Assembly (NCBI RefSeq): GCF_028290025.1
Contig: NZ_JAQGKQ010000088.1
Location: forward strand, 1 to 64,000
DNA length: 64,000 bases
Source of the DNA: Cypionkella sp.
GTDB taxonomy: Bacteria; Pseudomonadota; Alphaproteobacteria; Rhodobacterales; Rhodobacteraceae
Direction: 5' to 3'
The notes beneath the pieces were generated by a model. It was not told the DNA's origin, ran no database searches, and worked only from the letters and a program-made list of their open reading frames with translations. Shown here piece after piece: positions 161 to 16,532 of this stretch. Numbering within the stretch: the stretch's first letter is position 1; the number at the start of each line of letters is the position of its first letter. The translations under genes and the position numbers were made by a program.

Positions 161-248
161 CTGCGCGACCGGAAAGTGTGGTTCCAGCAAACAACGCAAA
201 CAAATACAGGGCCAGCACACCACGGCTGGCCCATCCGAGCGCATCACG

Positions 249-1977: not shown

Positions 1978-2110
1978 TTATTCGCGCTCATCGCAGCGCA
2001 ATGCGCGGGTGGAAGTGTCGCCGATTGCCGGGTGATTGAATGTTTGGGCAATTATGCACACTGCACCACTGACCATGGCCGGGACTTGGCAAAGCTGTCG
2101 GAGTGACTGC

Positions 2111-2275
2111 GCTGCCTACACTGGGCTTTACGCCTTTGCCGCACAGGCCGAGCTCGGCGACTGCTTTGCCTTTTGGGCGTGGCAATGCCCGGACCGCACG
2201 CCGTTTTGGCCGGTGCCGGGCATGACGCCATTCGCAGCTTTATTTTACTTCATGAAGCGAGTTGATGCCAGTTAA
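2111..2275 (+). pseudogene. ynfA: YnfA/UPF0060 membrane protein fragment
   Basis: The plus frame reads AAYTGLYAFAAQAELGDC, then FAFWAW, PGM and KRVDAS before a stop. This follows the N-terminal half of the UPF0060 (YnfA) small four-helix membrane family, whose members typically start with an AxYAxAALAEIxGCFAFWAW-type segment and continue past RVD with an AGRAYAAYGG-type segment; that second half is absent here. Several conserved positions are changed (for example GC to GDC) and no good start or ribosome site precedes it. I call it a decayed fragment. UPF0060 genes are often found near metal-resistance genes, which suits the broken ZntA next door; that link is inference. Confidence 0.6.
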
Positions 2276-2375
2276 GATGGCGCTCACACGATCAGCACCT
2301 AAAAATGATCGGGGAGTATTTCAACGCGATCTCAACTCTCAGCCCCTTTCTTGACGTCGGTGCAGGCGCTTTCGT

Positions 2376-3368: not shown

Positions 3369-3515
3369 GGTTCTTAGCCTTTGCCGTTTGGGGCGTTTAT
3401 CCTGCGGCCCAAGTGGCGTGTTTTGCTATCTCGGGCCTCGTCAGATGTTCGTAAGCCTGCAGATTGCCATCGGGCAGATCATTTCGCCAGAGACTATTCC
3501 AATAGTGCGGCTAGC

Positions 3516-3869
3516 CTACTTCGTGAAGCCGTTGAACTGCGCAAAGTAGATCGCACCAAAACCGTCAAGCTTCGCACGGATTTCCGGGGTCGGATCGCCA
3601 TAGACGAACACCTTGTCGATCCGGGCAAGCGAGAGGAACTTCTCTGCGTAGGGCGCAAACGTTTCTTCAACATGGGGCAGCACACCTGCCATCCGATACC
3701 GCTCAAGAATATGAATGGCGGTGTGGTCCGCGTTCACAACGTATTCGTAAGTCAGCGTGTCCGGCTCATGGCTGGCAGCCTCGACGATTACTGCAACGAG
3801 GGCCTCAAATTCCGCGAAGTCCTGAGGTTTGATGGTCATGTGGTAGATGGAATACAGTTCGCCGTTCAT
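3516..3869 (-). CDS. ABM-like (antibiotic biosynthesis monooxygenase fold) small protein
   Basis: A 117-aa protein with the dimeric ferredoxin-like pattern of YgiN/ABM enzymes: a first strand (ELYSIYHMTIKP), helix with FAEFEALV, the segment HEPDTLTYEYVV typical of the family (usually EPGTLxYE), and AIHILERYRM. Such proteins act as cofactor-free quinol monooxygenases or degradative enzymes; the function here is not proven. I chose the start at 3869 because the coding strand has GAAAGGA about seven bases before this ATG; an in-frame upstream ATG at 3947 has no ribosome site and adds unrelated sequence. Its partner next door is an NADPH quinone reductase, which would fit a quinol/quinone redox pair (inference). 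Confidence 0.75.
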   Translation of the reverse strand: MNGELYSIYHMTIKPQDFAEFEALVAVIVEAASHEPDTLTYEYVVNADHTAIHILERYRMAGVLPHVEETFAPYAEKFLSLARIDKVFVYGDPTPEIRAKLDGFGAIYFAQFNGFTK

Positions 3870-3997
3870 GGCGTATCCTTTCAAGTTTGTATAATTATGT
3901 GTTGTTCGTCCTAATGCTACGCTGAGGCATGGCTTCATGATGATCACCTTGCACGAGGTGAAAGTTGCGATCGGCGATGGGTGGCGAGCGTGAAGTT

Positions 3998-4978
3998 TTA
4001 CTCCGCCACGAACGCACGCAGATCGGCAACAAAGCGCACCGGGTTCTTCAGCATCAGGAAATGGTCGCCATCGTCACCGCTGCCGTAGTTGAACAGGCGG
4101 CCATCGGGTGCGGTGTCCACGATCCACTGCTGGCTGGGCAGGTTATTGCTCTGCTCGCCGGAAAACACCGCGACGGGGATGTCCAGCTTGTGCTGGATAA
4201 CATCGCTCCAGTCGTTCGTTGCGTGATCGAACAGAACCAACATGCTGAAGGCGGGGTCTGCCGCTATCTGGTGCGCCAACCCCAACGCATTTTGCGCATA
4301 GGGCGAGTCCACCATCTGCGACCGCTGCACCACCTTCATGTCCACGACCTGCTGGTTGGTCGGTGCACCGGCGTATGCCTCGATCATCCGCTCCGGCGAG
4401 GTGGTCATGCCGCCCGCATTCAGGCGTTCCTGCTCTGACCAGTTCGCATGGGTGTAGATCGACACTGGCTCGTCAACGAAGACCGCTTTCGAGATACGGT
4501 CGGTGCCGAACAGGTCGATATAGCTCCAAATGACCGACACGCCCATTGACCACCCGGCAAGCACGGTTTTCTCGACACCGATGTGGTCAAGGAGTTCGTT
4601 GAGGTCCATCGCGTAGCGCGCAATGCGCTGGCCCTTGAGCGTCTTCTCGGACGTGCCCTGATTGCGCGGGTCCAGCACGTAAACGTGATTAGTCTTCGAC
4701 AGCAGCCAGAGTTCGTTGAAAAGTTCAGCCCCGCTCGCACCCCATGCTGGGACGAAGACAATCGGATCACCCGAGCCAGCCTCCCAGTAATTTAGCCGGA
4801 TGCCGTCATTGCTGGTGAAGCTATTGATTTGCAACCCTTTGAAGTCGGAAAGCTTCGCAGGCATGCCGTCAATCGTCTTCGGGAACGTGTAGTCGCCGAT
4901 GACAGCGACGGCCGTGTCCGCCATTGCAGAGGTGACGAGCGGCAGGGACAGCAGAACGGCGGCAAACAGGTGTTTCAT
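3998..4978 (-). CDS. Exported alpha/beta hydrolase
   Basis: A 326-aa alpha/beta-hydrolase with a cleavable signal peptide (MKHLFAAVLLSLPLVTSAMA, predicted cut after residue 20), so it acts in the periplasm or outside. The nucleophile elbow is GWSMG (Ser144); the oxyanion region is FVPAWGASG; the likely catalytic His is in GDDGDHFLML near residue 306. The nucleotide start chosen at 4978 places the signal peptide at the N-terminus; an in-frame start at 5062 would bury it behind 28 basic residues. No specific substrate can be assigned. The tautomerase gene upstream (5032-5211) is in the same direction and 53 bases away, so the two likely form one transcript facing the LysR gene. Confidence 0.85.
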   Translation of the reverse strand: MKHLFAAVLLSLPLVTSAMADTAVAVIGDYTFPKTIDGMPAKLSDFKGLQINSFTSNDGIRLNYWEAGSGDPIVFVPAWGASGAELFNELWLLSKTNHVYVLDPRNQGTSEKTLKGQRIARYAMDLNELLDHIGVEKTVLAGWSMGVSVIWSYIDLFGTDRISKAVFVDEPVSIYTHANWSEQERLNAGGMTTSPERMIEAYAGAPTNQQVVDMKVVQRSQMVDSPYAQNALGLAHQIAADPAFSMLVLFDHATNDWSDVIQHKLDIPVAVFSGEQSNNLPSQQWIVDTAPDGRLFNYGSGDDGDHFLMLKNPVRFVADLRAFVAE

Positions 4979-5031
4979 CGGAGGTCTCATTTCGAAAGGG
5001 AAACGCGACCGAGGCTTCGGGCGCACATTTG

Positions 5032-5211
5032 TCAGCCGAACAGCTTGCCTGCGCCAGCCCAATCCGACGCTTTCAGGTCTTCAAAAATCACATAGATATA
5101 GCTGGCATCGGTGCCGGTATTCTTGACGATGCTCTCGGTGATCTCTTTGGCCACCACGGCTTTTTCTTCAGCAGTCTTTCCGTCAAACCAGCTTACGCGC
5201 ACTACGGGCAT
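5032..5211 (-). CDS. 4-oxalocrotonate tautomerase family protein (59 aa)
   Basis: A short gene of 59 codons beginning MPVVRVSWFDGKTAEEKA. Pro2, exposed after removal of Met1, is the catalytic base of the 4-oxalocrotonate tautomerase superfamily; the beta-alpha-beta layout (VVRVSWF, helix KAVVAKEITESIV, strand SYIYVIFEDL) fits a single unit of that fold and the family's usual 58-75 residues. GAGG-like ribosome site (GAGGATAAG) lies seven bases before the ATG. It is the first gene of the tautomerase-hydrolase unit and is divergent from the LysR regulator at 5335. Confidence 0.85.
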   Translation of the reverse strand: MPVVRVSWFDGKTAEEKAVVAKEITESIVKNTGTDASYIYVIFEDLKASDWAGAGKLFG

Positions 5212-5274
5212 ATCTTATCCTCATTTATCTAAACGCCGGGCCTCTTGGCCGCAGCTTGTGTGAGGAAGATAACC

Positions 5275-5299
5275 GTGTCACCGATACAATATTAGACAC
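5275..5299. promoter_or_regulatory. Inverted repeat in the LysR/tautomerase intergenic region (candidate LysR site)
   Basis: The 123-base region between the divergent tautomerase and LysR genes contains GTGTC (5275-5279) and its complement GACAC (5295-5299), 15 bases apart, around a TACAAT hexamer. LysR-type regulators usually bind such dyads between themselves and a divergent target. Seen: the dyad. Inferred: the role. Confidence 0.4.
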
Positions 5300-5334
5300 T
5301 GGTTTCTCCTCTCAGAGTGTCGCCGGAGGATATA

Positions 5335-6240
5335 ATGGCACAGCCGGACCTTCAGGGTATTCAGGCGTTCGTCGAAACTGCCCGGCATCTGAGTTTTACT
5401 GAAGCTGCGCAGGTTCTGGGCTTGACCAAGTCGGCGGTGGGTAAAAGTGTCACCCGGCTGGAGGCACGGCTTGGAGTGACCCTGATCCATCGCAGCACAA
5501 GGCGGCTGATCCTGACACCGGACGGCGAGGCCTACCTTTCGGTGGCCCGCCACGCACTGGAGGACATTCAGGCAGCAGAAACCTCGCTGACAAGCCAAAA
5601 CCGCACCATCGCGGGCCGCCTACGTGTTGATGCACCTGCGGCTTGGGGTCGGCAGGTGCTGCTGCCCATCTTGGCCGGGATCGCGCAGGAACATCCCGAC
5701 CTGCGGTTGTCGCTGTCGTTCACCGACAGGATCATCGACCCGATCGAAGAACAGGTCGATCTGGTGATACGCTTTGGCGAGACGTCCGACACGACTGGCC
5801 TGATCAGCCGCAAGCTGGCAGAACAACGGGTGCCACTGGTGGCAGCCCCCTCCTACATCGCACGGCGGGGGATGCCACAGACGCCCGAGGATCTGGGCCG
5901 CCATGACTGCATCACAGGCGTGCGAACCGACGCACCGACCGGCTATCGGCTCACCGGGCCAGATGGCCGCCCCACGCGTCTCCGCGTCACGCCGACACAT
6001 GAAGTAGGCGATGGCACAGCGGTGGTGGATGCGGCAATCGCAGGGCTCGGTATCGCGCAAATGCCGTGGTCCCTGGTAGCCCCGGCGCTGTCCGACGGCC
6101 GACTGGTGGGGGTGTTGCCAGACCACGCCACAGCAACGGTCAGCATCTCCGCCCTCTGGCCCGAAACGCGCCATCTGCTGGCCCGTGTTCGCCATGTCGT
6201 CGACGTGCTAGCACTTAGGGGACGCGAGGGACAGTTGTGA
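5335..6240 (+). CDS. LysR-family transcriptional regulator
   Basis: A 301-aa LysR-type regulator. The N-terminal winged helix reads FVETARHLSFTEAAQVLGLT, followed by KSVTRLEARLGVTL and a type I/II periplasmic-binding-like effector domain (LRVDAPAAWGRQVLLPIL onward) of the CrgA/AaeR-like class. The ATG at 5335 is preceded by GGAGGA at the right distance; an earlier GTG at 5317 overlaps that ribosome site and is rejected. It is divergent from the tautomerase-hydrolase pair, which it probably controls with a small-molecule inducer. Effector unknown. Confidence 0.92.
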   Translation: MAQPDLQGIQAFVETARHLSFTEAAQVLGLTKSAVGKSVTRLEARLGVTLIHRSTRRLILTPDGEAYLSVARHALEDIQAAETSLTSQNRTIAGRLRVDAPAAWGRQVLLPILAGIAQEHPDLRLSLSFTDRIIDPIEEQVDLVIRFGETSDTTGLISRKLAEQRVPLVAAPSYIARRGMPQTPEDLGRHDCITGVRTDAPTGYRLTGPDGRPTRLRVTPTHEVGDGTAVVDAAIAGLGIAQMPWSLVAPALSDGRLVGVLPDHATATVSISALWPETRHLLARVRHVVDVLALRGREGQL

Positions 6241-6344
6241 ATGGGCACGACGGCGCAAGCTGAGATGCTTCGTGCAAACAAAATCGTCGTCTTGCGTCAA
6301 ACCAGCCCATGCCCCGCAACGGCGCGCGACGCTGTCCTGTGCCG

Positions 6345-7025
6345 TTATCGTCTCTTCAGCCGCGGTGGTTTCTTCGACGGATCTTCGACGTCCATTTCCC
6401 AGTCGCTGCTGAACTCGCGCGTGCGGATCAGCGCCATCACTTCTTCAATCGGCGCGCGCCATTCGCCGAGCCAGAGAGCAATGTCGTCATGACCTTCAAG
6501 CAGTAGCGGCATACGGTCGGTGATTGCCGAGATGAGCTGGTTGGCAGGGACGGTCACCTGGACAAACTCGCACTCTGGGCCGCGGCCAACGTCGAACTGA
6601 TCATAGATCACGCCGATGATGGCAGGGCGGCCTTCCTTATGCCGGATGGTCCATTGCTGCGTCCATAATTTGCCCGCGCGCTCGCCATCCTCATATGCCA
6701 GCGGCACCTCCCGGCCTTCGTTGAAGGTCTTGGCAAAAGTGATGCCGCGTTGGGCGTGAAACGCGTCCGTGAAGGTCCGCAACTGATGCACTGTCTCCCC
6801 GCGTGCATGCATGTGTTTTGGCGTTCGACGACCATCGCCGCGTCGGTCGGTGAAACCCCAGATCATCGGGGTGATAATGCGCTCACCGTTGCGGTCCAGA
6901 TGCACCACGGGCACCGCCCGCATTGGTGTGAAGGTGCGCACTTCATCGTCGACCCGCGCCGCGAAAAGGTTGGAGAACTCGTGCACCTCGCGCCACGACG
7001 CCATCTGGGTGAACTTGCCGCACAT
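6345..7025 (-). CDS. Variant SRAP (HMCES/YedK-like) protein
   Basis: A 226-aa member of the SOS-response-associated peptidase family (DUF159), which cross-links its Cys2 to abasic sites in single-stranded DNA. It starts MCGKFTQMASW, so Cys2 is kept. Two other positions that are catalytic in E. coli YedK differ: the usual NARAET motif is HARGET (Asn75 position becomes His) and the usual IHxRMP is ITDRMP (His160 position becomes Thr). A Glu remains in KTFNEGREV near the YedK Glu105 position. The C-terminal tail is basic (KKPPRLKRR). It sits alone, just downstream of the STAND gene on the same strand. SRAP genes are common on phages, plasmids and next to DNA-repair genes. The family call is firm; altered chemistry is inference. 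Confidence 0.85.
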   Translation of the reverse strand: MCGKFTQMASWREVHEFSNLFAARVDDEVRTFTPMRAVPVVHLDRNGERIITPMIWGFTDRRGDGRRTPKHMHARGETVHQLRTFTDAFHAQRGITFAKTFNEGREVPLAYEDGERAGKLWTQQWTIRHKEGRPAIIGVIYDQFDVGRGPECEFVQVTVPANQLISAITDRMPLLLEGHDDIALWLGEWRAPIEEVMALIRTREFSSDWEMDVEDPSKKPPRLKRR

Positions 7026-7433
7026 TGGAGACCTCGGAGAAGGACAGTAATTAACAAAGCATAGAACAAAACCGACGGCGCACCACTATCGGGATATTCG
7101 ATGCACCTGAGCACGGTTTCCTTGGGCGTAGGAATCGAGGCGAGGCCGCCTGGCACCTGCCTTGCCATTTGAGCACCCCCGGAGGGCGTAGTTGATGGGA
7201 TGGTCCCGGAGTGTGCTCAGGTGGAGTCTACGAGGTATAAGCCCCGAGGCGACATTTGGTGGTTCTTGACCTGAATACAATGCAGTGCGGTGCATTGGCA
7301 TTTGGATCAGCCAATCGATACTCACAGCCCAGATCTGCCGTTCGCTGACTCTTAACTGGAATGGCTGTTTATCGCCCCAAACCTCCCGCTACACGCGACC
7401 TTTCACGCAGCTCCAAACCGTCGCCAACCTGAT
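7026..7433. other. Intergenic stretch with an 11-bp inverted repeat
   Basis: No convincing gene in these 408 bases. CACCTGAGCAC at 7104-7114 recurs as its exact complement GTGCTCAGGTG at 7213-7223, and a third TGAGCAC lies at 7170-7176. They may be regulator sites for the SRAP promoter or a terminator-like structure after the STAND gene. No T-tract follows, so an intrinsic terminator is not supported. Confidence 0.45.
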
Positions 7434-10400
7434 TCAGCGCAACAATTCAGGAAGATCGTAGAGCAGTTTCAAAGCTTCAGGCCAGCCGACGTCGGAAAAT
7501 AGGCGAAGGATCGCTATCAGCCGATCGCGGCGGCAACTATCCTCGAAGATCGAGCGGTGGTCGGCGAGATAGAGGGTGATCATGGGCACGATGACCGAGC
7601 TTGCCATGCTCTCGTGATGGTAGCCCTCGCGCGCGCCTGCGCCGAGCAGAACCGCATGCAGCGCGTCAAACACGCCGGCCGGGTCGCCCATAATCAGATA
7701 CTCGTAGAGCTCGACCAGATGATGATGGGTCGATGGCTCATGCGAAATTGCGAGCAGCTCAAGCATCGGCCGGTAGTCGACGAGAAATCTGCGCCTGAAG
7801 TCGGGACTGACTAGCCCGACCTGGGCTTCCTTGTTGTCGGCGTATGCGCCCGAACCAAAATAGAGCTGGTTCATGAGATGGCCGATGACAATCTCGGCCG
7901 CCTTATAGGCGGTGACCACAGCATCGCGCTCGGCACCCTCGACGCTTTCGACCGTCAACGCGCGATGACTGCGTGCCGCGACCGCCGAGCAGCCCTCGAG
8001 AATTAGCATCGCAGCTTGCTGCGCTCGATCGGCAACCGGCGGATCATGGTCTTTCCCCGAAGCGTAGCGCGCGAAGAACGCGCCGCGCAGCTGTGAGAGG
8101 AACGAGGTCAGGAATTCGCGATGCTCTGCGGGCTGGCCGGCCCAGTCAACGAGCCAGTCCAGCGCCTTGTGCCGGCCCTGCCAAACCCAAAGCTGGGCAA
8201 TGAGGCCTCCGAGAGATGAGGCGATCTGATCGCGGCCGGAGTTGCCGTCGCGCTCGACCGCCTCGTGGCGCGCCCGCACGATTTCGATTATCGCCTCGCA
8301 GCGCTCGGCGTAGTCCCGAGTGAAGCGCGACAACGCATGTAGGAAAGAAGCCAGCACCTCGGCATGACGCTCCTCATGTGCGAGGCGTTCGGCCAACACC
8401 CACATGCGTTCTGGCGCAATGCGCGAGAGGACTTGTAGACTCCGCGCGGCTTGCAGGCGGACCTGCGCGACGGGGTCGGCGAGGATCTCATCAAACTTGT
8501 CGACGATCTCGCCATGCGCTTCGCCGAAGCGGTCCGCGAGCGAAACATAGGCGTCGGCGGCACAGACGCGAACGTCCCAGTTGCTCCAACTGAGCCCAGC
8601 ATCTTCGCTGGCGTCTTTCGCTTCCGGGTAGCGGCTGGTCCAGAGCCTTTCTAGTAGAGCAAAGAATGACACCATGTCTGGCAGCTCGCCAGCGTCGGGC
8701 ACGAACGAGTCGTTGCCGGAAATGCGCTCGACGGCGTTGCTGATATAGCCCCAAACAGGCTGCTCGACCTCCTCGTGCAGTTCGCCGACATGGGCATCGT
8801 AGAGCGCCACTGTGACCATGGTTTCGGACCACAGCGCCGCGAGCGCGTCGGCATCGCTCGTTGAGGACGTCGTCTGCACCAGCTCATAAAGCGTATCGGA
8901 TTGGGCGAGCATCCTCGCGTCGATGCCTTCCTCGACATCGACGCCGCGCCCCGCCATCAATGAGCGGGTGATCCCGCCAGGCGATCCCCGGAGCGTCTTC
9001 ACCGATCGAAGCGGTGGGTTACCGGCCAGCGCGCTCTGGGAAGCCAGCTCAGCGCGCAGCAAATGCATCGCATCTATCGCCAAGTGCGCTTCGTCAACCA
9101 GCGACAGCAAGCGCGCCAAGCTACTCTGCCACCAGCGCAGCTCCTGTTCTGAGGTGAACAAGTCAGGTCGTAGCGCCTCCGTCTCAAACGCGGCTCGCTC
9201 CTGTTTTGACCGCGTGGGATAGGCGGCCGCGAGAAAACGGACGGCGTCGCGAACGATACCGTGATGCGCGAACATCGTCACGTCGGAGGCAAAGGGCCAA
9301 AGAAGATCGCCGACCTCGGCAACACGCTCGGCGCCCACGCCGAGCAGACGCGCCCAAAGAGCAGGATGCACATAATTAGTGGCGGCAGTATCGATGCTCT
9401 CGGCATAGATTGCAGGATTTGCGGCACGCAAGAAGGTCACGTAATGCGTTAGGACATCGTCTTTCTGCGATGGGCGATCAGCATCTGGCTCACTCCAGCT
9501 GTTGAAGCCATGTTCGTGGCCGAGAAGATCAAAGGGTGCGCGGCCCGGCAAAATCACGCGCTTGCGCCCGTAGCCGAGCGGACCGTCGCGCACGATATTC
9601 CCTAGCGTCGCCTCGTTGACGACGCGCGTGCCGAGGTTTGCCGACAACTCGAGCAACTGGCCGGTTCGGCGACCGAGATTGTAACGGCAGTTGAGATAAT
9701 CCTGACTGCGGCGCGAGGATAGCGACAAGATGCGGCTTGGCTGCCCGCCAAAATAGGAGGTCGCGTCGTCAGTGATCTGGCGCGAATAGAGCACTCGATA
9801 TATCTCCACTGCGAACTCGGCGTTCGCCCGCGCAATAGGCATGATTTGCTTTGCCAGCCAGGTCGCCTCGCGGTCGGCATGTGCCGAGAAATGTGGTTCG
9901 CGGAGCACGCGATCAAGCAAGGTGCCCGAGGCGGACGGATCAGAACCAAAGCTCTTGCCGACGAAGAGGATACCATTCACCGCCGTATTCTGCATTACTG
10001 GGTCTTCCGCCCACGCGAGCGTTAGCAACGCGCGAGACGCACGCCCGAACAAGCTAAGCATGTCCGGGTCCGACATATCCGCCTTGTCGAACAGAGTGTG
10101 GAGCAGCAAGCGCGTTGGATCGGAAAGCTCGCAATTTCCAGTAACGATGCACGCATCGGCGACGCCCGCCCAAGCGAGCGCCTCGGACGCTGAGATTGTG
10201 CCCGATGAACCGACGGCGATGCCCACGAAGCGCGCAAGCCGCGAGAGCATGGTCGCGAGCGCTTCATCGTTGGCGCGGGCGGCGATGATCGCAGTCAGCC
10301 CCACTACATTAGCCGCGGTCTCGACGCAGTCGATTGCGGTTCGCAGGGCAACATTGGCAAGCACGGGGTCGACTGTCACATCAGTGTATATGTTGGCGAC

Positions 10401-12365
10401 AAGACGCCAGACTTCGACTTTATCTGCCGCGTCGCGCCGCCACAGCCGCTCCAGTGAAAAGCGTAGGCCCGGCGCTAGCATCAGTGCGATCGAACTGTCG
10501 CCGCCAAGCTGACCAATCAGTTGCTCAGGATCGTCCCACTCAAGGTAGAAGCACCCGGCGACATGGTCGAACAGGACATGATGTGAGAAACTGACGAGAT
10601 CGCCGGTTTCGGCGAGCACCCCCGATTGGATCACATCGTCAAGGCGATCATGCCCCACAACGATTTTTCGCACCGCCATGCGTCGTCGCTGCACCATCGC
10701 CCCGACTGCTGCGCCCGCTGCCTGCTGTATCGCGGTGCCGGTCAGGCGGCGATCCTCATAGGCATCGATCAGGTCGGACTGAGTGGCAACAAAGCGAATG
10801 CTCGCAGGACTCGCGCCATCAGCGAGTAGCTGAGCGGCAAGTGATAGGTTGAAGATGTTTCGTAGCAGATCGCGCAACTTGTCGGGCGCAGCCGCGAGCA
10901 AGACGCCAAGTTCGCCAACGCTCGAAGCGGCTCGATCAAGATCGGATTGGGTAAGGCGTGGAATCAGAAAATGCCGCACGCCGGAAAGAGATGGCTCAGC
11001 GAAGTTCGCGTTGGGCGGATTTCCCGGCATGGCATTGCGAAAACGCCGCCCGTTCTTTAGGTCAAAAGTTCGGATCGATACCATGATTGTCCAGCCCGTA
11101 TCCGGCTCTGTGCTCAACTTCTCAATCAATTGCGCGAAGACGCCTTCGGCGGGTCCGCCTCGCGCGGCGTCGAGCGCGTCGATTACGAGAAGTTTTCCGC
11201 CGGTGCCAGGAGCCGCAGTCAGCACTTCGGCAAGCGGGTGGGCAAGACCAAGCTCGGATTGCAGATCGGAGGCGATACTGACGCCTGGAAAACGATCAAC
11301 GGAGAGAAAGACAACTGTGTCGCCGCATGCGCGGCGGGCTTCGGTCAATGCGACCATTGAGCCGGTCTTACCCGCGCCAGGCTCACCAACCACGATTAGA
11401 GACCCAGTAGCAACTGCGGCGATAAGCGGTGCATCGCTGTCGCGCGCGACGGGCACACCGCCGCCGATGGGCAAGCGCGTATGCTCCGCCAGACGAGAGA
11501 GCTCGGCGTCGGTTATCGCGGCAAGCCTGACAAGATCAGGCTCATAGCCTGCTGAACCGACATCATTGTGCCCCAATTTTCTTAGCGTGCGCAGCAGCCC
11601 CTCACGATCGGCAGCCGCGCCGCTGCCGATCAAGCCGCGGATGATCGCCTTGAGGCTGAGCAGCGGTGCCTCGCCAGCGGCGTCCCCCCCGTATAGCCTG
11701 CGACCGAGCACCCGCGCGGCCTCCCGCCAATTGTCGTCGCCCTCGTCCATCGAGAAACGGACGATGCGAAACAGTCGCGCCATCGTGACGAGGTCGTGTT
11801 CGTCGATGAGGATGGTCGTATGCGCCGCCCAAGCGGTGCGGGCATGGCTCTCGAATAGTTCGAGTGCCTCTCGCTCGGCCTGACTGCGTTGCGCCTTTGT
11901 AGACAGCCAGGCGCCGCCCATATCGAACGCGCGGCAGCCTCGCTCGAGATTGTTGAGCGTTTGCGGCGCCGCCGCGGTGACCGCCAACACCGCTCGGCGC
12001 TTGGTTGTATCGATCACGATCCCTGAGACCTTTGCATCAGCGACAGTCCGCACCAACTGCGCGATCGTCTTGCCGAGAGGGTCAGTCGAATTGGTCGACA
12101 AACTCGCTTTTGTCTTAGCCTGAAAATCGATACGGCTGCCGTCGTTCTGGACGAGCAGCGCATCGTCCAAGCCCTCGCCGGTCTCGAACTGGATGTTTAC
12201 GGGGAGCGCAACGCTGGCTATGCCAAACCGCCCACCCACCGGCAGCCGAGCAAGCAGATGCGTGGCGAGCCAAGTGCCAACCTCGGCTTGGAAATTCATC
12301 CCCGCTTCGGTCGCTTTTCCGCCCGCGTGTTTTCGGGGCGCTGCTTTAGGCTTCAGTTCACTCAT
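7434..12365 (-). CDS. Avs-like STAND NTPase with N-terminal nuclease domain (candidate anti-phage protein)
   Basis: A 1643-aa multidomain protein. Residues about 17-125 resemble a PD-(D/E)XK nuclease of the Cap4/DUF4297/Mrr sort: GMNFQ (22-26), then GEGLDD (63-68) and, after 12 residues, FQAK (81-84), i.e. D...QxK. Residues about 310-540 form a STAND/AAA-type P-loop NTPase: Walker A GEPGAGKT (327-334), Walker B LLVIDALDA (392-400), and a sensor-like strand IMVSIRTFDL (427-436). The remaining roughly 1100 residues are helical, with HEAT-like segments such as DPVAQVRLQAARSLQVL near residue 1295. This nuclease-NTPase-sensor order matches Avs (AVAST) defence proteins and similar NLR-like systems, where the C-terminus recognises a phage protein and the nuclease degrades DNA. 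No partner gene is adjacent. The start at 12365 lacks a clear ribosome site; Met23 is an alternative. Domain calls are by eye; defence role is inferred. Confidence 0.7.
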   Translation of the reverse strand: MSELKPKAAPRKHAGGKATEAGMNFQAEVGTWLATHLLARLPVGGRFGIASVALPVNIQFETGEGLDDALLVQNDGSRIDFQAKTKASLSTNSTDPLGKTIAQLVRTVADAKVSGIVIDTTKRRAVLAVTAAAPQTLNNLERGCRAFDMGGAWLSTKAQRSQAEREALELFESHARTAWAAHTTILIDEHDLVTMARLFRIVRFSMDEGDDNWREAARVLGRRLYGGDAAGEAPLLSLKAIIRGLIGSGAAADREGLLRTLRKLGHNDVGSAGYEPDLVRLAAITDAELSRLAEHTRLPIGGGVPVARDSDAPLIAAVATGSLIVVGEPGAGKTGSMVALTEARRACGDTVVFLSVDRFPGVSIASDLQSELGLAHPLAEVLTAAPGTGGKLLVIDALDAARGGPAEGVFAQLIEKLSTEPDTGWTIMVSIRTFDLKNGRRFRNAMPGNPPNANFAEPSLSGVRHFLIPRLTQSDLDRAASSVGELGVLLAAAPDKLRDLLRNIFNLSLAAQLLADGASPASIRFVATQSDLIDAYEDRRLTGTAIQQAAGAAVGAMVQRRRMAVRKIVVGHDRLDDVIQSGVLAETGDLVSFSHHVLFDHVAGCFYLEWDDPEQLIGQLGGDSSIALMLAPGLRFSLERLWRRDAADKVEVWRLVANIYTDVTVDPVLANVALRTAIDCVETAANVVGLTAIIAARANDEALATMLSRLARFVGIAVGSSGTISASEALAWAGVADACIVTGNCELSDPTRLLLHTLFDKADMSDPDMLSLFGRASRALLTLAWAEDPVMQNTAVNGILFVGKSFGSDPSASGTLLDRVLREPHFSAHADREATWLAKQIMPIARANAEFAVEIYRVLYSRQITDDATSYFGGQPSRILSLSSRRSQDYLNCRYNLGRRTGQLLELSANLGTRVVNEATLGNIVRDGPLGYGRKRVILPGRAPFDLLGHEHGFNSWSEPDADRPSQKDDVLTHYVTFLRAANPAIYAESIDTAATNYVHPALWARLLGVGAERVAEVGDLLWPFASDVTMFAHHGIVRDAVRFLAAAYPTRSKQERAAFETEALRPDLFTSEQELRWWQSSLARLLSLVDEAHLAIDAMHLLRAELASQSALAGNPPLRSVKTLRGSPGGITRSLMAGRGVDVEEGIDARMLAQSDTLYELVQTTSSTSDADALAALWSETMVTVALYDAHVGELHEEVEQPVWGYISNAVERISGNDSFVPDAGELPDMVSFFALLERLWTSRYPEAKDASEDAGLSWSNWDVRVCAADAYVSLADRFGEAHGEIVDKFDEILADPVAQVRLQAARSLQVLSRIAPERMWVLAERLAHEERHAEVLASFLHALSRFTRDYAERCEAIIEIVRARHEAVERDGNSGRDQIASSLGGLIAQLWVWQGRHKALDWLVDWAGQPAEHREFLTSFLSQLRGAFFARYASGKDHDPPVADRAQQAAMLILEGCSAVAARSHRALTVESVEGAERDAVVTAYKAAEIVIGHLMNQLYFGSGAYADNKEAQVGLVSPDFRRRFLVDYRPMLELLAISHEPSTHHHLVELYEYLIMGDPAGVFDALHAVLLGAGAREGYHHESMASSVIVPMITLYLADHRSIFEDSCRRDRLIAILRLFSDVGWPEALKLLYDLPELLR

Positions 12366-13511
12366 GCTAAGGCCGTTCAGAAGGAGTTACGTCTTTTTAG
12401 CCACCACTCGTCCTTTTCCTATGGAGCTTGGGGGAGGACAAAAGCAGCTATGGGTTCGTGATGTAGATGGCAGTTTTGTGGGCTCTCAAATTCATATCGC
12501 AACTTCTTCTCCCAGCCCATAGCAGTCGTGCGTGACAGCTGCGGCTAATGCCCGCTCTCCGTCCTCGGGGGGCGACTTTGAGACCGAGGTCGCTGGATAA
12601 GGTGTTTGGGAGTTTCGTCCAATCATGGTCACCAAGCTCATTGCGCCATAAATCCAAGTGATGAACGAAAAGTTGCATTTTGGGGTTCGTCTGCTGGCCG
12701 GTATCGTGAGAGGAGCTTTGGTGCCCAGTCAGTCGCCGCAACAGAATACACCCCCCAGGCACATCGATGATTTTTCTACGACTTCGGTGGCTTACAAGGC
12801 GCGTGAGCTCTAGGTTGCGCAACCGTCGCACGTAAGGCTGTCACTATGACAGAGGGAGGCACCGGCTCGGTGCATGTGCAGCCATTCCTAGGGGCATTTG
12901 GGACGTAAGCGTAGCTTTGGCGTTCATGGAAGACTGCTGGTCATGTGCTCTTTGTCTGGGCTTTGGGCTACTCTGTCGACTTCTGGGTGGGTGGCGGCCT
13001 CTGATGCTTCGCATGGCAGGTTAATCTTTGGAGCGTTGTTCTTCCGGGACAATGCTCAGATCGGTGGTCGCAAGCATATGGATTGTTCCCTATATGTTCC
13101 AGTATGCCCAATTAAGCGATCATGTTCGGCTTGGAGCCCGCGATCGTGAGCTACACGGTGTCCTTTCTGCCATAGGAAGGCACGCGTGGACGATGCGCCA
13201 GCACGACTTGCAGCATCAGTCGCGGCGCTGTCACGCGCTCTGTCGGGGCTGCAGGCTCGGCTATTTTTTCTATCTATGCTGTTTTCGTCAATTTCGGGTA
13301 ACCTCCTGTCAACGAAAACGATCTTTTGGTTTGTCTTGCTCTGACAAATCGCCCTTCATCGACAAGCATTTCCTCAATTTTTGCTGAATTCCGGGCGCTC
13401 GTTGACACTGGCAGACGCTATTTGTTTACGGCGTCAACCAACTGGATCGTAAACGGAATGGTTCGTTGCGCTGGCGCGATCAAACAAGTGGCTATGGTGT
13501 CACTCGTCTTT
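12366..13511. other. 1.1-kb noncoding stretch upstream of the STAND gene
   Basis: Open frames here have no recognisable protein features, no ribosome sites and mutual overlaps, so I see no gene. It contains the stem-loop cluster at 12813-12873 and, at its right end, an inverted repeat GTTTACG (13424-13430) / CGTAAAC (13448-13454), which could terminate the leftward XRE transcript. The stretch may hold decayed element genes or an unrecognised RNA. Confidence 0.5.
12813..12873. other. Cluster of three perfect palindromes/stem-loops
   Basis: Within 61 bases there are GGTTGCGCAACC (12813-12824, a perfect 12-bp palindrome), CTGTCA-cta-TGACAG (12838-12852, 6-bp stem) and GCACCG-gct-CGGTGC (12859-12873, 6-bp stem), followed by TGCATGTGCA. 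None overlaps a gene. Possible roles are a structured small RNA, protein-binding dyads, or an origin or recombination region of the element. Seen: the dyads. The function is unknown. Confidence 0.5.
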
Positions 13512-13703
13512 TCACCGACCTGGCCTTTCGCGGAGCCTTCTCTGGTGATCCAACGCGTCCCGGAGTGCCTGAACCGGCTCCAGGCTCGGTGGTGGCACCC
13601 CATCGAAACAAATTACCCGGAGCAGCTCGATCCAGCCTTTTTCAGCTTCAGTAAGCGGACCGTCCTGCGGCACGGCAAATCCTTCAAACATCCTGTGCGT
13701 CAT
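13512..13703 (-). CDS. 63-aa protein coupled to the XRE regulator
   Basis: A small ORF starting at 13703 whose ATG overlaps the TGA of the XRE gene (ATGA), a sign of translational coupling. It begins MTHRMFEGFAVPQDGPLTEA and ends RLRERPGR. The first part looks like one or two helices (LTEAEKGWIELLRVI), with a basic tail. I recognise no family. It could be a cofactor of the regulator or one partner of a two-gene module such as toxin-antitoxin; there is no direct support for either. The case for a real gene is the overlap and the absence of rare stops. Confidence 0.55.
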   Translation of the reverse strand: MTHRMFEGFAVPQDGPLTEAEKGWIELLRVICFDGVPPPSLEPVQALRDALDHQRRLRERPGR

Positions 13704-14095
13704 TTGCCGAAGATCCCCCTCAGTGCCGTGCGTGACCTGGTGGTAATGCGGGGATCTGTGTCTTTCGAGGCGCTGCGGATTTCTTCGATCCAAGCGCGTT
13801 CGTTCGCACTGACCGGCGTGCCGAAGATTTCAACAATCGCGTTAGCGGCAGTGCTGCCGACGGCTTGGTCGAGGGCGAGGCGAAGCAAGAGCGCCGGATC
13901 ACAGTCCAATGCGTGTGCCAGTGTTGGCACACGGTCGAGCGGCATCTTGGCACTCCCGGATCTAATCATAGAAAGCACGTTCGCGTTATGAAAACCTGCC
14001 TCGTGGGCAATCTCGGCTTGCGTCTTGGGTTTCAGCTGGAGGATGCGCGTCTGAACAAACTTCGCGAGTGCTGTGTCTTGGTGAGGTTTGGTCAT
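13700..14095 (-). CDS. XRE-family helix-turn-helix regulator
   Basis: A 131-aa protein with an N-terminal lambda-repressor-like domain: KPKTQAEIAHEAGFHNANVL is the helix-turn-helix (about residues 27-46), followed by SMIRSGSAKMPLDRVPTLAHAL. The C-terminal 60 residues (VGSTAANAIVEIFG, SANERAWIEEIR) are of unknown function. It is divergent from the promoter of the 14340 gene across a 244-base region containing two dyads, so it is the natural candidate repressor of both directions. Regulators of this size are typical of phage and integrative-element control regions. Confidence 0.85.
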   Translation of the reverse strand: MTKPHQDTALAKFVQTRILQLKPKTQAEIAHEAGFHNANVLSMIRSGSAKMPLDRVPTLAHALDCDPALLLRLALDQAVGSTAANAIVEIFGTPVSANERAWIEEIRSASKDTDPRITTRSRTALRGIFGK

Positions 14096-14144
14096 GTTCT
14101 AGTCCTGTTGGTGTTTATCATGACCTATTTATAGCAGCGGATCA

Positions 14145-14159
14145 GGTGACAATGTCGCC
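14145..14159. promoter_or_regulatory. 15-bp palindrome upstream of the XRE gene (candidate autoregulatory operator)
   Basis: GGTGACAATGTCGCC is a near-perfect palindrome (core GACA-TGTC), about 50 bases upstream of the XRE start. A TATAAA hexamer on the minus strand (14133-14128) lies between it and the gene, so the dyad overlaps the expected -35 region. Binding by the XRE protein is inferred. Confidence 0.45.
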
Positions 14160-14284
14160 TTAAATGATTGTTTTTAATGGGATATTACGGGAGTTATCGA
14201 GAAGGGGACGCCATGATTTGTGTCCAAAAGCAACTCGTCGGGACCAGTCGATGACAGTGACTCAGCAAAGTCTGCAAAAGCCAC

Positions 14285-14323
14285 TTGACAAACAGTAACG
14301 GTAACTATATAAATAACGTTACC
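14285..14323 (+). promoter_or_regulatory. Near-consensus sigma70 promoter with flanking dyad operator
   Basis: TTGACA (14285-14290), a 17-base spacer and TATAAA (14308-14313) form an almost ideal promoter for the gene at 14340. GGTAAC (14300-14305) and GTTACC (14318-14323) bracket the -10 box, and a further GTAAC copy starts at 14295. Such spacing suggests a repressor covering the promoter, most simply the divergent XRE protein. Confidence 0.65.
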
Positions 14324-14339
14324 AAGAACGGAGTTAATC

Positions 14340-14870
14340 ATGGTTTTGTCACCGGCAGAAAAGCAGAGTCGCTATCGCGAACGCCAGAAGACGTTGAAAC
14401 AAGTTGCAAATCGCGTGGCGCAGAAACAGATCGACACGCTGTTCCCGGCAACCTTTCACGAGTTCTTCAACGACCACGGCGACAACACGACCTTTCACAT
14501 AGCTTTCGATGCTATGGGTATGGATGCGCCAGAGTTCACGGATAATGCCGGTCCAAAATCAGTGTCGGGTCAGATCGAGATCGACAATGAAGAGTTTAAC
14601 GTCAACCTAGGCTACACGGGTTCTCTAGGCCGCGCAGAGAACATGATTGAACAACTGATCGACGCGACTGTCAGCCTGTCTGGCATTGTGAACGACTTCA
14701 AGCGCGAGCAGATCACCGCGCGCCTGACCGAGATTGAGCTAGCAGACCTCACAGACCCAGCGAACCGCAAGGCAGCGATGGGGGAGGTTGTGCGGCTGAA
14801 CAAGCTACTGGAACGGCTGTCAAAGCCTGCACGGTGGAACTTCCCACAGTGGAAGTTGAAGGGCGAATAG
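14340..14870 (+). CDS. Orphan element protein (176 aa)
   Basis: Begins MVLSPAEKQSRYRERQKTLK, a basic, helical N-terminus seen in many small phage and island proteins. Charged throughout, no membrane segment. The middle (IEIDNEEFNVNLGYTG) may be a short beta region, followed by long helices (MIEQLIDATVSLSGIVNDFK; EVVRLNKLLERLSKPA). I do not recognise a family or function. It is the first gene behind the strong promoter at 14285 and is followed by another orphan gene about 100 bases downstream. Confidence 0.7.
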   Translation: MVLSPAEKQSRYRERQKTLKQVANRVAQKQIDTLFPATFHEFFNDHGDNTTFHIAFDAMGMDAPEFTDNAGPKSVSGQIEIDNEEFNVNLGYTGSLGRAENMIEQLIDATVSLSGIVNDFKREQITARLTEIELADLTDPANRKAAMGEVVRLNKLLERLSKPARWNFPQWKLKGE

Positions 14871-14973
14871 CCCTTAGATGAACCTGCCGGGTGGCTGAAA
14901 CACCCGGCAGGGAAAAGTGAACGCAGACTATCAAATCAACATTCAGGCCCGCGGGCCATACAAGGAGAATACC

Positions 14974-15309
14974 ATGACGAACGGCAAAACGGCAACTTCC
15001 AGCGTTGTTAATCTTGAAAGCGAGATGGCGCTCGCCCGCATTGCTGCGGGGTTGGATCGGCCCAATCTGCGTAAATATCATTTGCCCTTAGATGAAGAGG
15101 CATTTGTAGCTGATATGAAAGCTGCAGAGGCTGCAGGAAAACTTCATGAAATTCCTATTGGTGAGTTGGTATACTTGCCGAACGGCAAGAGTCTGAAGGA
15201 CTCAACAGATGCAGAAATTCATACCTTTTTCATGTTTGAGCTGTTTTTGGCACTTGGGAAAGATATTGAGGCAGACTGGGAGCGACAGGATGCTGAGGTG
15301 GCAGCATGA
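14974..15309 (+). CDS. Orphan element protein (111 aa)
   Basis: The start at 14974 is set by AAGGAG eight bases upstream; an earlier in-frame codon at 14917 lacks one. The protein reads MTNGKTATSSVVNLESEMAL at its N-terminus and is mostly acidic and helical (EEAFVADMKAAEAAGKLHEI; EIHTFFMFELFLALGKDIEA). No signal peptide, no known motif. It is probably cotranscribed with the 14340 gene. Function unknown. Confidence 0.7.
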   Translation: MTNGKTATSSVVNLESEMALARIAAGLDRPNLRKYHLPLDEEAFVADMKAAEAAGKLHEIPIGELVYLPNGKSLKDSTDAEIHTFFMFELFLALGKDIEADWERQDAEVAA

Positions 15310-15463
15310 TGAACTAAACCAAAGTTGCGGGTGTAGGATAGCAATACCAATTCATGCCAAATGCATCGATCAACAAGGCTTGACGTGCTTTAAGCACAAA
15401 GTTTGGCAAGGTCATTTGCTGAGTCCGCTCGGTTGCTATGGCGAAGCGTTCACTAATCGCAGA

Positions 15464-15504
15464 CGCCGAATGGCGGCATAGGCCGCCGTTGCCGCCGAAT
15501 GGCG
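15464..15504. repeat. Direct repeat of a 12-mer
   Basis: CGCCGAATGGCG occurs at 15464-15475 and again at 15493-15504. Each copy is itself partly dyadic (CGCC/GGCG). Their position between the orphan genes and the excisionase-like gene would suit binding sites for an element protein; this is inference. Confidence 0.5.
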
Positions 15505-15528
15505 TTGCTCTGGCAGCAAATTCTTAGA

Positions 15529-15565
15529 GCCCGCCCGGTTGCATACCCGGCGGGCTTTTATTTTT
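15529..15565 (+). terminator. Intrinsic terminator after the orphan genes
   Basis: GCCCGCC (15529-15535) pairs with GGCGGGC (15549-15555), followed by TTTTATTTTT. It would end the rightward transcript from 14285. Confidence 0.75.
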
Positions 15566-15732
15566 GGAGCAACCACGCCCATTGCGCGCGGGTAAAGCAA
15601 GGGCGTCGCGGTCTCGCGACCCAGCAACCCGTCATTGCGAGATCGCGCTTGCTAGGGTGGCTCAGTTCCGTTCTGCCAAATGATTGTCCCGGCGAAAAGA
15701 TCACGCGGTGCAAGTCTGTGTGGCGTCGTAGC

Positions 15733-16002
15733 CTAAAGGGATTCCTCAGTATCATCCTGATCCATAAATGCAGGGATCTCGAGCAGGAACGTTCCATCAA
15801 CCATCATGCAGGCCTGAAACTTACTTTCATACTTAATTAGGTCCTCCAAGCGCCATCGGGTGGCCCCACGCCCAATGCGAACCGCAGCGGGGAACTCTCC
15901 ATTGCGCTTCCATCGCCATATGCTGTCTACTGAGCAGTTGTAACGAGCAGCAACCTGTTCAACAGTGAGAAATGATGAGACGCCGGTGGAAGTAGTAATC
16001 AT
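15733..16002 (-). CDS. AlpA-family helix-turn-helix protein (excisionase-like)
   Basis: An 89-aa MerR/AlpA-type DNA-binding protein. LTVEQVAARYNCSVDSIWRW is the winged helix-turn-helix, followed by KRNGEFPAAVRIGRGATRWR, the usual AlpA wing with RLEDL. AlpA proteins regulate or directly assist excision of integrated elements (as in CP4-57). It is the gene nearest to the tRNA-Phe 3' end, about 180 bases away, which supports an integrated element here. The last 25 residues (MMVDGTFLLEIPAFMDQDD) are an acidic extension not typical of short AlpA proteins. Confidence 0.85.
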   Translation of the reverse strand: MITTSTGVSSFLTVEQVAARYNCSVDSIWRWKRNGEFPAAVRIGRGATRWRLEDLIKYESKFQACMMVDGTFLLEIPAFMDQDDTEESL

Positions 16003-16094
16003 ATTTAGTCCCAGCTAGGTGTGTGATCTTGAAGGCGTCCCACGCGCAGGAGGTCACTAGTGAGCGACAGAGCACAAAAGGTGTCGCGACAGTT

Positions 16095-16114
16095 TGTAGC
16101 CCATGTGTAGCCCA
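16095..16114. repeat. Tandem TGTAGCCCA pair near tRNA-Phe
   Basis: TGTAGCCCA occurs at 16095-16103 and 16106-16114, about 70 bases from the tRNA 3' end. Short direct repeats flanking an attachment core are typical arm-type integrase sites. No integrase is visible, so the role is only suggested. Confidence 0.4.
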
Positions 16115-16183
16115 GATGAAGCAATCTCGGCAAGCCGACAAACTGCTTGAAAATTTTCTGCTAAATATTTCAATGAGATAAAG

Positions 16184-16259
16184 TGGTGCCCGGAGACGGA
16201 ATTGAACCGCCGACACGCGGATTTTCAATCCGCTGCTCTACCAACTGAGCTATCCGGGC
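16184..16259 (-). tRNA. tRNA-Phe (GAA)
   Basis: The minus strand folds as a 76-nt cloverleaf: acceptor GCCCGGA/TCCGGGC, D-arm with AGCTCAGTTGGTAGAGC, anticodon loop TTGAAAA (anticodon GAA) on a GCGGA/TCCGC stem, T-arm with GGTTCAATTCC, and encoded CCA. Its 3' end faces the accessory region to the left, the usual orientation for an integration site. Confidence 0.97.
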
Positions 16260-16355
16260 GCACTGGAAGGCGTCGCCTTGCTTGGTTGCGGGGTGATACG
16301 TTACGGGCGCGAGGCTGTCCAGAGGGTTTTGGCAGAAAAATGCATCCTTTTTGGT

Positions 16356-16532
16356 TCATTGTGGGCGGTATTTTGGATCGGTCAAATCCTCGGGGTTTTC
16401 ATCGTCAATCGCTGCGGTCGGGATAGCGTAGCTGCCGGTAAGCCATTTTGCCAAATCAACATCTGCACAGCGTCGCGAGCAGAACGGCTTGTATTTCTCG
16501 TCGGATTTGCGGGCACAAATCGGGCATTTCAT
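16356..16532 (-). CDS. yacG: YacG zinc-ribbon protein (DNA gyrase inhibitor)
   Basis: A 58-aa protein [20 protein letters not shown]... with the four zinc ligands Cys3, Cys6, Cys18 and Cys22 and the family segment ADVDLAKWLTGSYAIP. In E. coli YacG binds GyrB and inhibits gyrase. Its ATG overlaps the TGA of the upstream RNase E/G gene (ATGA). It is the last gene of infA-maf-rng-yacG. Confidence 0.95.
   Translation of the reverse strand: MKCPICARKSDEKYKPFCSRRCADVDLAKWLTGSYAIPTAAIDDENPEDLTDPKYRPQ

What the first reader, a model, noticed from the sequence alone, without database searches (positions are those of the whole stretch)
7434..12365. Solo 1643-aa nuclease-STAND NTPase-helical repeat protein: candidate Avs-like anti-phage system
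The protein combines a putative PD-(D/E)XK nuclease start (D67/D68...QAK at 82-84, preceded by GMNFQ), a clear P-loop NTPase (GEPGAGKT 327-334, LLVIDALDA 392-400) and about 1100 residues of helical repeats. Known Avs proteins use this order to sense phage terminase or portal. Here it lies in accessory DNA near a tRNA end. I could not match the C-terminal sensor to a described Avs type, so target and clade may be new.
Basis: partly seen in the sequence, partly recalled or inferred. Interest (0 to 1): 0.8.

Follow-up and report, generated by a model that had tools for sequence, protein, structure and literature searches.

The report
Solo nuclease-STAND defence protein, PDC-M54A family
This large bacterial gene looks like an intracellular alarm that senses an invader with a long helical arm and then cuts DNA; its family is already listed as a candidate anti-virus system, but here it occurs without its usual partner gene.

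Summary
Observation confirmed: an intact 1643-aa ORF lies at 7434-12365 on the MINUS strand, with every motif at the stated residue. The Avs-like reading is largely right, but the family is not new: PADLOC's candidate model PDC-M54A covers the protein (1172.8 bits). D67, D68, Q82, K84, the Walker residues and a winged-helix His are invariant in 21 of 21 homologues compared. The residue 1-640 model finds Avs4, Avs3 and animal NLRs first; the C-terminal model finds HEAT-type solenoids. Against an Avs2 profile only the NTPase/winged-helix part matches: it works like an Avs but is not one by sequence.

New here: (i) PADLOC also has PDC-M54B; B, probably a second nuclease, overlaps A in 6 loci, but in 0 of 6 members of the window's clade and not in the host assembly. 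(ii) The gene lies in a tRNA-Phe island whose probable other end, on another contig, carries an integrase, CRISPR-Cas9, Fic, Zorya-like and GmrSD-type genes. Trigger and activity are untested.

The parts
7434..12365 (-). PDC-M54A gene, 1643 aa, start ATG at 12365
11961..12323 (-). residues 15-135: predicted PD-(D/E/Q)XK nuclease effector (helix, strands 55-60, 69-73, 78-84, helix 96-114, strand 123-129)
12162..12167 (-). D67-D68, invariant in 21 of 21 rows
12114..12122 (-). Q82-A-K84; Q and K invariant in 21 of 21 rows
10956..11435 (-). residues 311-470: STAND NTPase core
11364..11387 (-). Walker A GEPGAGKT (327-334)
11166..11192 (-). Walker B region LLVIDALDA (392-400)
10446..10955 (-). residues 471-640: helical/winged-helix part of the STAND module, with the FxHHVLFD motif (H595, D600 invariant in 21 of 21 rows)
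7437..10445 (-). residues 641-1643: HEAT-type alpha-solenoid, presumed sensor
8616..9665 (-). residues 901-1250: lowest-identity stretch against L027 and L042, candidate specificity region (inference)
16181..16233 (.). att repeat: 3' end of tRNA-Phe, second copy on contig C33 of the same assembly
16184..16259 (-). tRNA-Phe (GAA), island boundary
15733..16002 (-). AlpA/HTH_17-type small regulator of the island (also a weak PADLOC mad1 match)
13700..14095 (-). Cro/C1-like HTH protein (match below cut-off)
6345..7025 (-). SRAP-family gene downstream of the ORF, where B lies in other loci

Best explanation
A stand-alone, Avs/NLR-like immune receptor of the PADLOC candidate family PDC-M54A, carried by a tRNA-Phe defence island. 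Proposed mechanism: the C-terminal HEAT solenoid binds an invader-derived ligand; this releases the autoinhibited ATP-binding STAND module (P-loop, Walker B, winged-helix His); the protein oligomerises; the clustered N-terminal PD-(D/E/Q)XK domains become an active DNase that cuts invader and probably host DNA, stopping the infection, perhaps at the cost of the cell. Shown here: order of parts, invariant catalytic residues, fold relationship to Avs3/4 and NLRs, HEAT-type C-terminus, tRNA-Phe location with a duplicated att, absence of the partner B. Inferred: activation by ligand, oligomerisation, DNA as substrate, phage as the invader, and that this clade acts without B.
For: PADLOC PDC-M54A full length, 1172.8 bits. 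Nuclease, Walker and winged-helix residues invariant in 21 of 21 rows. Residue 1-640 model, pLDDT 86.1: Foldseek ranks 1-3 are Avs4 8dgf (two chains) and Avs3 8dgc, followed by NLRP3, NLRP9, NOD2, NLRC4, with EfAvs5 at rank 17 of the 50 shown. Weak Pfam matches in members: nSTAND3 8 of 14, NACHT 6 of 14, HEAT 6 of 14. Profile match to Avs2 over the NTPase/winged helix, prob 94.8, against 0.15 for the unrelated B family. A solved 1523-aa 'AAA family ATPase' (9n00) matches the profile at E 4.3e-12 with pieces in the order nuclease-STAND-HEAT; two of the four pieces reach 0.01 by themselves. Patchy, mobile distribution: 14 plasmid records; 4 of 394 genomes drawn from the family, two of them C-terminal remnants. 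Defence-type neighbours in relatives: Shedu (L028, L029), NACHT and HEPN (L027), DUF262, HEPN-like, DNA methyltransferase and abortive-infection genes (L030). The probable other end of the island carries Cas9, Cas1, Fic, ZorA/B-like and GmrSD-type (HEC-05) genes.
Against: No activity data. No Pfam nuclease model is among the matches of the window protein at E<=10 or among the 25 of 32 families shown for the 14 members, so the nuclease rests on invariant residues and the predicted fold; LmuA matches in 2 of 14 members help only if they lie in the N-terminus, which the output does not show. In Pfam, generic AAA models hit more members (14, 12, 10 of 14) than STAND models (8, 6). 5 of 14 members weakly match mad8, another defence protein (best E 6.3e-4). 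Low TM-scores (0.31 to Avs4). The C-terminal Foldseek hits are generic solenoids with low TM. PADLOC has a B model for this system and the window lacks B, so this copy could be an orphan that no longer works.
Confidence: 0.72

Rival explanations
1. Orphan half of a two-gene system: PDC-M54A needs the partner B (second nuclease) and the window copy, having lost B, is inactive or a decaying remnant.
For: PADLOC holds separate models for A and B; B overlaps the end of A in L032, L033, L034, L022, L041 and L045. C-terminal remnants of A occur in two genomes of the family (G005, G846), so decay happens.
Against: The 6-row clade of the window (100/100; one member, L030, is a long branch) lacks B in 6 of 6 while keeping full-length A with all the catalytic residues; 60-65% identity over 99-100% of the length to three plasmid copies argues for selection on the solo form.
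Confidence: 0.15
2. Anti-plasmid or inter-element exclusion receptor rather than an anti-phage one: it senses conjugation or replication proteins of competing elements.
For: 8 of 14 plasmid records with the family are typed conjugative; the window copy sits beside a tRNA with duplicated att sites.
Against: The nearest folds with known triggers sense phage proteins: the Avs4 and Avs3 structures hit are bound to phage portal and terminase (entry titles). Defence genes in general ride on plasmids and islands (recalled).
Confidence: 0.2
3. Co-opted host regulator, for example controlling gene transfer agent release, as the CARD-NLR-like LypABC does in Caulobacter.
For: A NLR-like system was shown to control gene transfer agent lysis in an alphaproteobacterium (PMC13236601, abstract and section list only); the host here is of the family of Gemmobacter (inferred).
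Against: The gene is patchy (4 of 394 genomes drawn from the family) and lies on plasmids and at a tRNA att site, unlike a fixed host function; LypABC is tripartite with peptidase domains, not seen here.
Confidence: 0.03

Closest known systems
PDC-M54 (PADLOC phage-defence candidate, A plus B)
   Same: Full-length match to PDC-M54A.
   Different: No PDC-M54B next to it or in the host assembly; it belongs to a clade without B.
Avs3 / Avs4 (AVAST types 3 and 4; 8dgc, 8dgf)
   Same: N-terminal nuclease, central STAND NTPase, long C-terminal helical repeat (Avs anatomy from the introduction of PMC12931631, and recalled); best fold matches of residues 1-640.
   Different: No match to any Avs model at E<=10; the C-terminal model is HEAT-type and finds no Avs in the 50 of 827 rows shown.
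Avs2 (three sequences from genomes, A5)
   Same: Homologous NTPase/winged-helix stretch, prob 94.8.
   Different: No profile match in the N-terminal effector; in the C-terminal part only alternative alignments at prob 0.1.
PDB 9n00/9n01/9yix 'AAA family ATPase' (1523 aa)
   Same: Profile E 4.3e-12; aligned pieces in the order VDD...QCK, STAND, HEAT.
   Different: Very distant (the VDD...QCK piece scores 0.5 bits by itself); its function and publication could not be identified here (no paper found).
Lamassu LmuA (Cap4-type nuclease; the type is recalled)
   Same: 2 of 14 members match LmuA, best E 4.7e-5; matched region not shown.
   Different: The window protein itself shows no LmuA match at E<=10.

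Membership tests
STAND NTPase | P-loop, Walker B, arginine after strand 4 and winged-helix histidine in one module | tested here: met
   K333, D396, D399, R432, H595 invariant in 21 of 21 rows; fold matches Avs4, Avs3, NLRP3, NOD2, NLRC4
STAND NTPase | Match to a curated STAND/NACHT model | tested here: inconclusive
   Window protein: only AAA hits, below cut-off; nSTAND3 in 8 of 14 and NACHT in 6 of 14 members, best E 2.7e-5 and 0.0011, but generic AAA_22 in 14 and AAA_16 in 10 of 14
PDC-M54 | PDC-M54A protein | tested here: met
   1172.8 bits over 8-1643
PDC-M54 | Adjacent PDC-M54B protein | tested here: not met
   No B match in 10 neighbouring ORFs at E<=1; 0 of 1 own genome at E<=0.1; B HMM finds none in the window's ORFs of 60 aa or more
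Avs (AVAST 1-5) | Sequence match to an Avs model | tested here: not met
   No Avs model at E<=10 for the window protein; 1 of 14 members weakly Avs2, E 0.0015
Avs (AVAST 1-5) | Effector - STAND - C-terminal repeat order | tested here: met
Avs (AVAST 1-5) | Homology of effector and sensor to an Avs type | tested here: not met
   By profile compared with Avs2 only: convincing match limited to NTPase/winged helix; by fold no Avs among the 50 of 827 C-terminal rows shown. The Foldseek alignments to Avs3/4 have 643-720 columns for the 640-residue model, so a distant effector relation is not excluded
Avs (AVAST 1-5) | Activation by phage terminase, portal or another phage protein | not testable with these tools
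   needs co-expression or plaque assays
PD-(D/E)XK nuclease | D...(D/E/Q)xK on adjacent strands in an alpha-beta-beta-beta-alpha-beta core | tested here: met
   D67, D68, Q82, K84 in 21 of 21 rows; predicted helix 20-39, strands 55-60, 69-73, 78-84, helix 96-114, strand 123-129; geometry not measured
PD-(D/E)XK nuclease | Match to a Pfam nuclease family (for example DUF4297/Cap4) | tested here: not met
   none for the window protein at E<=10; none among the 25 of 32 families shown for the 14 members
PD-(D/E)XK nuclease | Metal-dependent DNA cleavage | not testable with these tools
   -
CBASS (Cap4) | Adjacent CD-NTase | tested here: not met
   no such match among 10 neighbouring ORFs with PADLOC and 10 with Pfam; 9 ORFs are in both sets

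The most novel reading that the evidence does not exclude
PDC-M54A is a receptor chassis with two modes: in one clade it often has a dedicated second nuclease (B, predicted PD-(D/E)XK plus a Cys/His finger) in the same operon, and in the window's clade it has become self-sufficient, a single-protein HEAT-sensor counterpart of Avs with an unknown trigger, sometimes paired instead with another defence nuclease such as Shedu.
Probability: 0.35. Interest if true: 0.6.

Novelty: new variant of a known kind. Interest (0 to 1): 0.45.

Why it matters
It gives an intact, solo representative of a candidate defence family for which one term search of the paper library found no mention, with the residues to mutate and a region that may set specificity. 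If the solo clade works, one protein suffices to study sensing by a HEAT-type bacterial NLR relative, and comparison with the A+B clade would show how a second nuclease is added to such a receptor.

Tried and rejected
Avs membership by sequence: rejected. Att repeat inside window 1-17000: none involving the tRNA among repeats of 16 nt or more; it was found on contig C33 instead. Identity of PDB 9n00: no paper found. PDC-M54 by name: no paper found in the held library (one term); some searches were wider searches of which I saw the listings (only part of the papers found in 62, 72, 88 and 90); no row shown names this family in its title or the printed start of its abstract. B against PDB sequences: nothing at E<=1. 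Reovirus_M2 and BchD-ChlD hits were taken as chance. Accessions PDLC02165 and PDLC02166 were tried in the hope of Avs3/4 models; both are Avs2 models, so Avs3/4 were compared by fold only. The partial PDC-M54A matches in G045 and G040 were not followed up.

Full report
WHAT IS THERE. The ORF at 7434-12365 is real, on the minus strand, 1643 aa from ATG. By single sequence, Pfam and NCBIfam give only hits below cut-off (AAA_22 at 2e-4, HEAT at 0.011) and the PDB gives nothing convincing. PADLOC gives a full-length match to the candidate family PDC-M54A: 1172.8 bits over residues 8-1643, with two further PDC-M54A models at 647.8 and 258.2 bits. So the family was already in a defence library in 2023, as a candidate (that PDC stands for phage-defence candidate is recalled).

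RELATIVES. tblastn against plasmids found 14 records: 3 at 60-65% identity (Gemmobacter fulvus p3, Rhizobium leguminosarum CB782, Agrobacterium sp. T29) and 11 below 60%, from Rhizobiaceae (6), Streptomyces (2), Sphingobium, Hymenobacter and Nonomuraea. I fetched 12 of the 14; H5, which has the same coordinates and scores as H4, and H14, a 121-residue partial match, were left out. Genome searches at E<=1e-20 found a match in 4 of 394 genomes drawn from the family (window, one full-length copy starting at the same record coordinate as the Gemmobacter p3 copy and with the same HMM score, and two C-terminal remnants), 2 of 385 of the class (window and a fragment with stops) and 5 of 398 of the phylum (window, two full-length, one broken by a stop, one partial). 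At the looser E<=0.001, 27 of 61 relatives match: the window's genome in full, one same-genus genome with a 306-aa C-terminal remnant, two (G045, G040) with partial matches inside other ORFs of 1577 and 1773 aa, and 23 with only short matches around the P-loop.

CONSERVATION. I aligned the window protein with 13 homologues and then with 20 (left out: the split copy L031, the fragments L003, L024-L026, L046, L048, and L047 as a duplicate of L027). D67, D68, Q82, K84, Q103, K333, D396, D399, R432, H595 and D600 are identical in 21 of 21 rows; E61, S430 and H596 in 20 of 21. These are the residues expected of a PD-(D/E/Q)XK nuclease and of a STAND NTPase with winged helix (family knowledge, recalled).

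FOLD. AlphaFold2 on residues 1-640 with 8 sequences gave mean pLDDT 86.1 and pTM 0.61. Strands 55-60, 69-73, 78-84, helix 96-114 and strand 123-129 put D67/D68 just before one strand and Q82xK84 at the end of the next. Foldseek against the PDB (50 of 1158 hits shown): ranks 1-3 are Avs4 bound to phage portal (8dgf, two chains, best E 6.5e-12 over 644 columns) and Avs3 bound to phage terminase (8dgc, 1.3e-10); ranks 4-19 are mostly NLRs (NLRP3, NLRP9, NOD2, NLRC4) with EfAvs5 at rank 17; AAA+ proteins such as p97, NSF and ORC appear from rank 20 on, mixed with further NLRs. TM-scores are low (0.31 for Avs4). The C-terminal model (590-1643, 7 sequences, pLDDT 80.5, pTM 0.63) is almost all helix; its 50 listed hits of 827 are solenoid-rich proteins such as SF3b, CAND1 and karyopherins, with no Avs among them and with low TM. 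HEAT is also seen by sequence: the profile of 14 members matches the PP2A scaffold and Integrator subunit 4, and 6 of 14 members match Pfam HEAT. Against the closest relative L027, identity is 51-52% in residues 901-1250 and 62-75% in the other blocks; against L042 the same two blocks are lowest (26-27%); against L028 the low stretch runs on to residue 1530 (48-53%) and against L030 to 1450 (20-22%). I read 901-1250 as a candidate specificity region; this is inference.

IS IT AN AVS? It works like one by anatomy, but membership fails by sequence. No Avs model matches at E<=10; 1 of 14 family members matches Avs2 at 0.0015, while 5 match mad8 (best 6.3e-4) and 2 match LmuA (best 4.7e-5). A profile of 18 members against a profile of 3 Avs2 proteins aligns only over the NTPase/winged-helix stretch (profile positions 292-617, probability 94.8, E 4.9e-8); alternative alignments elsewhere have probability 0.1, and the unrelated B family gives 0.15. 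In contrast, the divergent NACHT neighbour in the Gemmobacter plasmid aligns over the nuclease plus NTPase (positions 8-617, probability 96.6). Avs1, Avs3 and Avs4 profiles were not available to me; Avs3 and Avs4 were tested by fold only. In Pfam, generic AAA models hit more members (AAA_22 14 of 14, AAA_30 12, AAA_16 10) than nSTAND3 (8) or NACHT (6), all weakly, so the STAND assignment rests on fold, profile and motifs. A solved protein, 9n00 (1523 aa, 'AAA family ATPase'), is the nearest structure by profile (E 4.3e-12) with aligned pieces in the order nuclease-STAND-HEAT; two of its four pieces reach 0.01 by themselves and the nuclease piece scores only 0.5 bits. I could not find its paper.

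PARTNER GENE. PADLOC also has PDC-M54B models. In L032, L033 and L034 a 463-481-aa gene overlapping the end of A matches PDC-M54B at 465-626 bits. An HMM of six B proteins finds B only in L022 (also seen as L071), L032, L033, L034, L041 and L045 among all loci held at that call except L049-L064, which the script skipped (short stretches fetched with the tRNA region and pattern). Many loci held have short flanks; for the tree rows the flank was long enough except for L044, and for L039 only 2.6 kb downstream is held. B has invariant E43-H44, D83-Y84 and E99-A-K101, the look of a PD-(D/E)XK nuclease, and a C-terminal Cys/His cluster (nature inferred; no Pfam hit for three of them, no PDB hit). 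In a 21-row tree the window lies in a 6-row clade (100/100: window, L027, L028, L029, L042, L030) with B in 0 of 6; the six B-bearing rows all lie in a 9-row group (98/97) together with L023 and L039 (no B found) and L044 (contig ends, cannot tell). L030 is a long branch whose place the tree program calls unsure, and the root is only a midpoint. With L044 counted as lacking B, the label needs at least 4 changes, so B was probably gained or lost more than once; shuffled labels do as well in 44 of 500 cases, so clustering of B on the tree is suggestive only. B is also absent from the host assembly (about 90% complete). In place of B, two members of the clade have a Shedu gene about 60 bp upstream of the annotated start (L028, L029) and one has a HEPN gene downstream and a NACHT gene upstream (L027); L042 has an integrase gene just upstream. 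The window has none of these next to it: downstream lies an SRAP gene, and among 10 neighbouring ORFs PADLOC finds only mad1 for the AlpA-like regulator (E 4.7e-6) and a weak mad2 (0.019).

ISLAND. The ORF lies 3.8 kb from tRNA-Phe (16184-16259). A 53-bp copy of the tRNA 3' end, 96% identical, lies at contig C33 15276-15328 of the same assembly (the 22-base pattern has exactly these two places). C33 positions 7926-13073, ending 2.2 kb short of that copy, are 81-82% identical to two sister genomes (L066, L068) whose same contigs go on to the same tRNA-Phe and right flank as the window. So C33 15276 onwards and C52 1-16233 are most likely the two ends of one island; the window starts at base 1 of C52, and the join itself is not seen. 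Right of the att copy on C33 come a tyrosine integrase with arm domain (Pfam), a SoFic-type Fic protein, a CRISPR array (18 copies in register in the main repeat family, spacing about 66), Cas1, Cas9, ZorB-like and (weakly) ZorA-like genes and a GmrSD-type protein, HEC-05. Two sister genomes have 9.5-9.7 kb between duplicated att copies at the same tRNA, so the site is used repeatedly.

MECHANISM. For Avs1-4 the literature describes nuclease effectors that cut phage and host DNA after recognising terminase, portal or another phage protein (PMC12931631: abstract and introduction read). By anatomy I infer the same logic here: HEAT solenoid binds a ligand, STAND module switches and assembles, nuclease cuts. 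None of these steps is shown. The main alternative is that this copy needs B and is an orphan; full-length copies throughout a B-less clade speak against it. Exclusion of plasmids rather than phages is also possible (8 of 14 plasmid records are typed conjugative).

VERDICT. Observation confirmed; interpretation partly right; family already listed as a candidate; the solo clade, the HEAT-type sensor and the island context are what this adds.

Noticed in passing
L065 15276-18981 and L070 1112-5276 (contig C33 of the window's assembly): Probable other end of the same tRNA-Phe island: att copy, tyrosine integrase, SoFic-type Fic protein, CRISPR array with 18 in-register copies in the main repeat family, type II Cas1 and a 1065-aa Cas9.
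   Followed up: partly
L070 6028-10929: Four-gene cluster with a ZorB-like protein (residues 188-355) that carries a staphylococcal-nuclease domain at 386-487 and a weakly ZorA-like protein; two further genes without family: possibly an unusual Zorya relative.
   Followed up: partly
L070 11655-13424: HEC-05 candidate defence protein, 622.6 bits, with GmrSD N- and C-terminal domains.
   Followed up: partly
L028 6517-7971 and L029 6517-7974: Shedu (SduA) gene about 60 bp upstream of the annotated PDC-M54A start on the same strand in two plasmids of different genera.
   Followed up: partly
L027 3945-7460: Divergent NACHT protein (1171 aa) beside the closest homologue that shares nuclease plus NTPase with PDC-M54A (prob 96.6): a second, shorter receptor of the same make.
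   Followed up: partly
L004 and L005 (genomes G045, G040): Partial PDC-M54A matches (E 5.7e-13 and 7.4e-9) inside ORFs of 1577 and 1773 aa: perhaps other nuclease-STAND receptors.
   Followed up: no
L066 8330-17899 and L067 7522-17240: Sister genomes carry 9.5-9.7 kb between duplicated att copies at the same tRNA-Phe; contents not annotated.
   Followed up: no
window 14340-15309: Two plus-strand ORFs (176 and 130 aa) between the HTH gene and the AlpA-like gene, without clear family.
   Followed up: no
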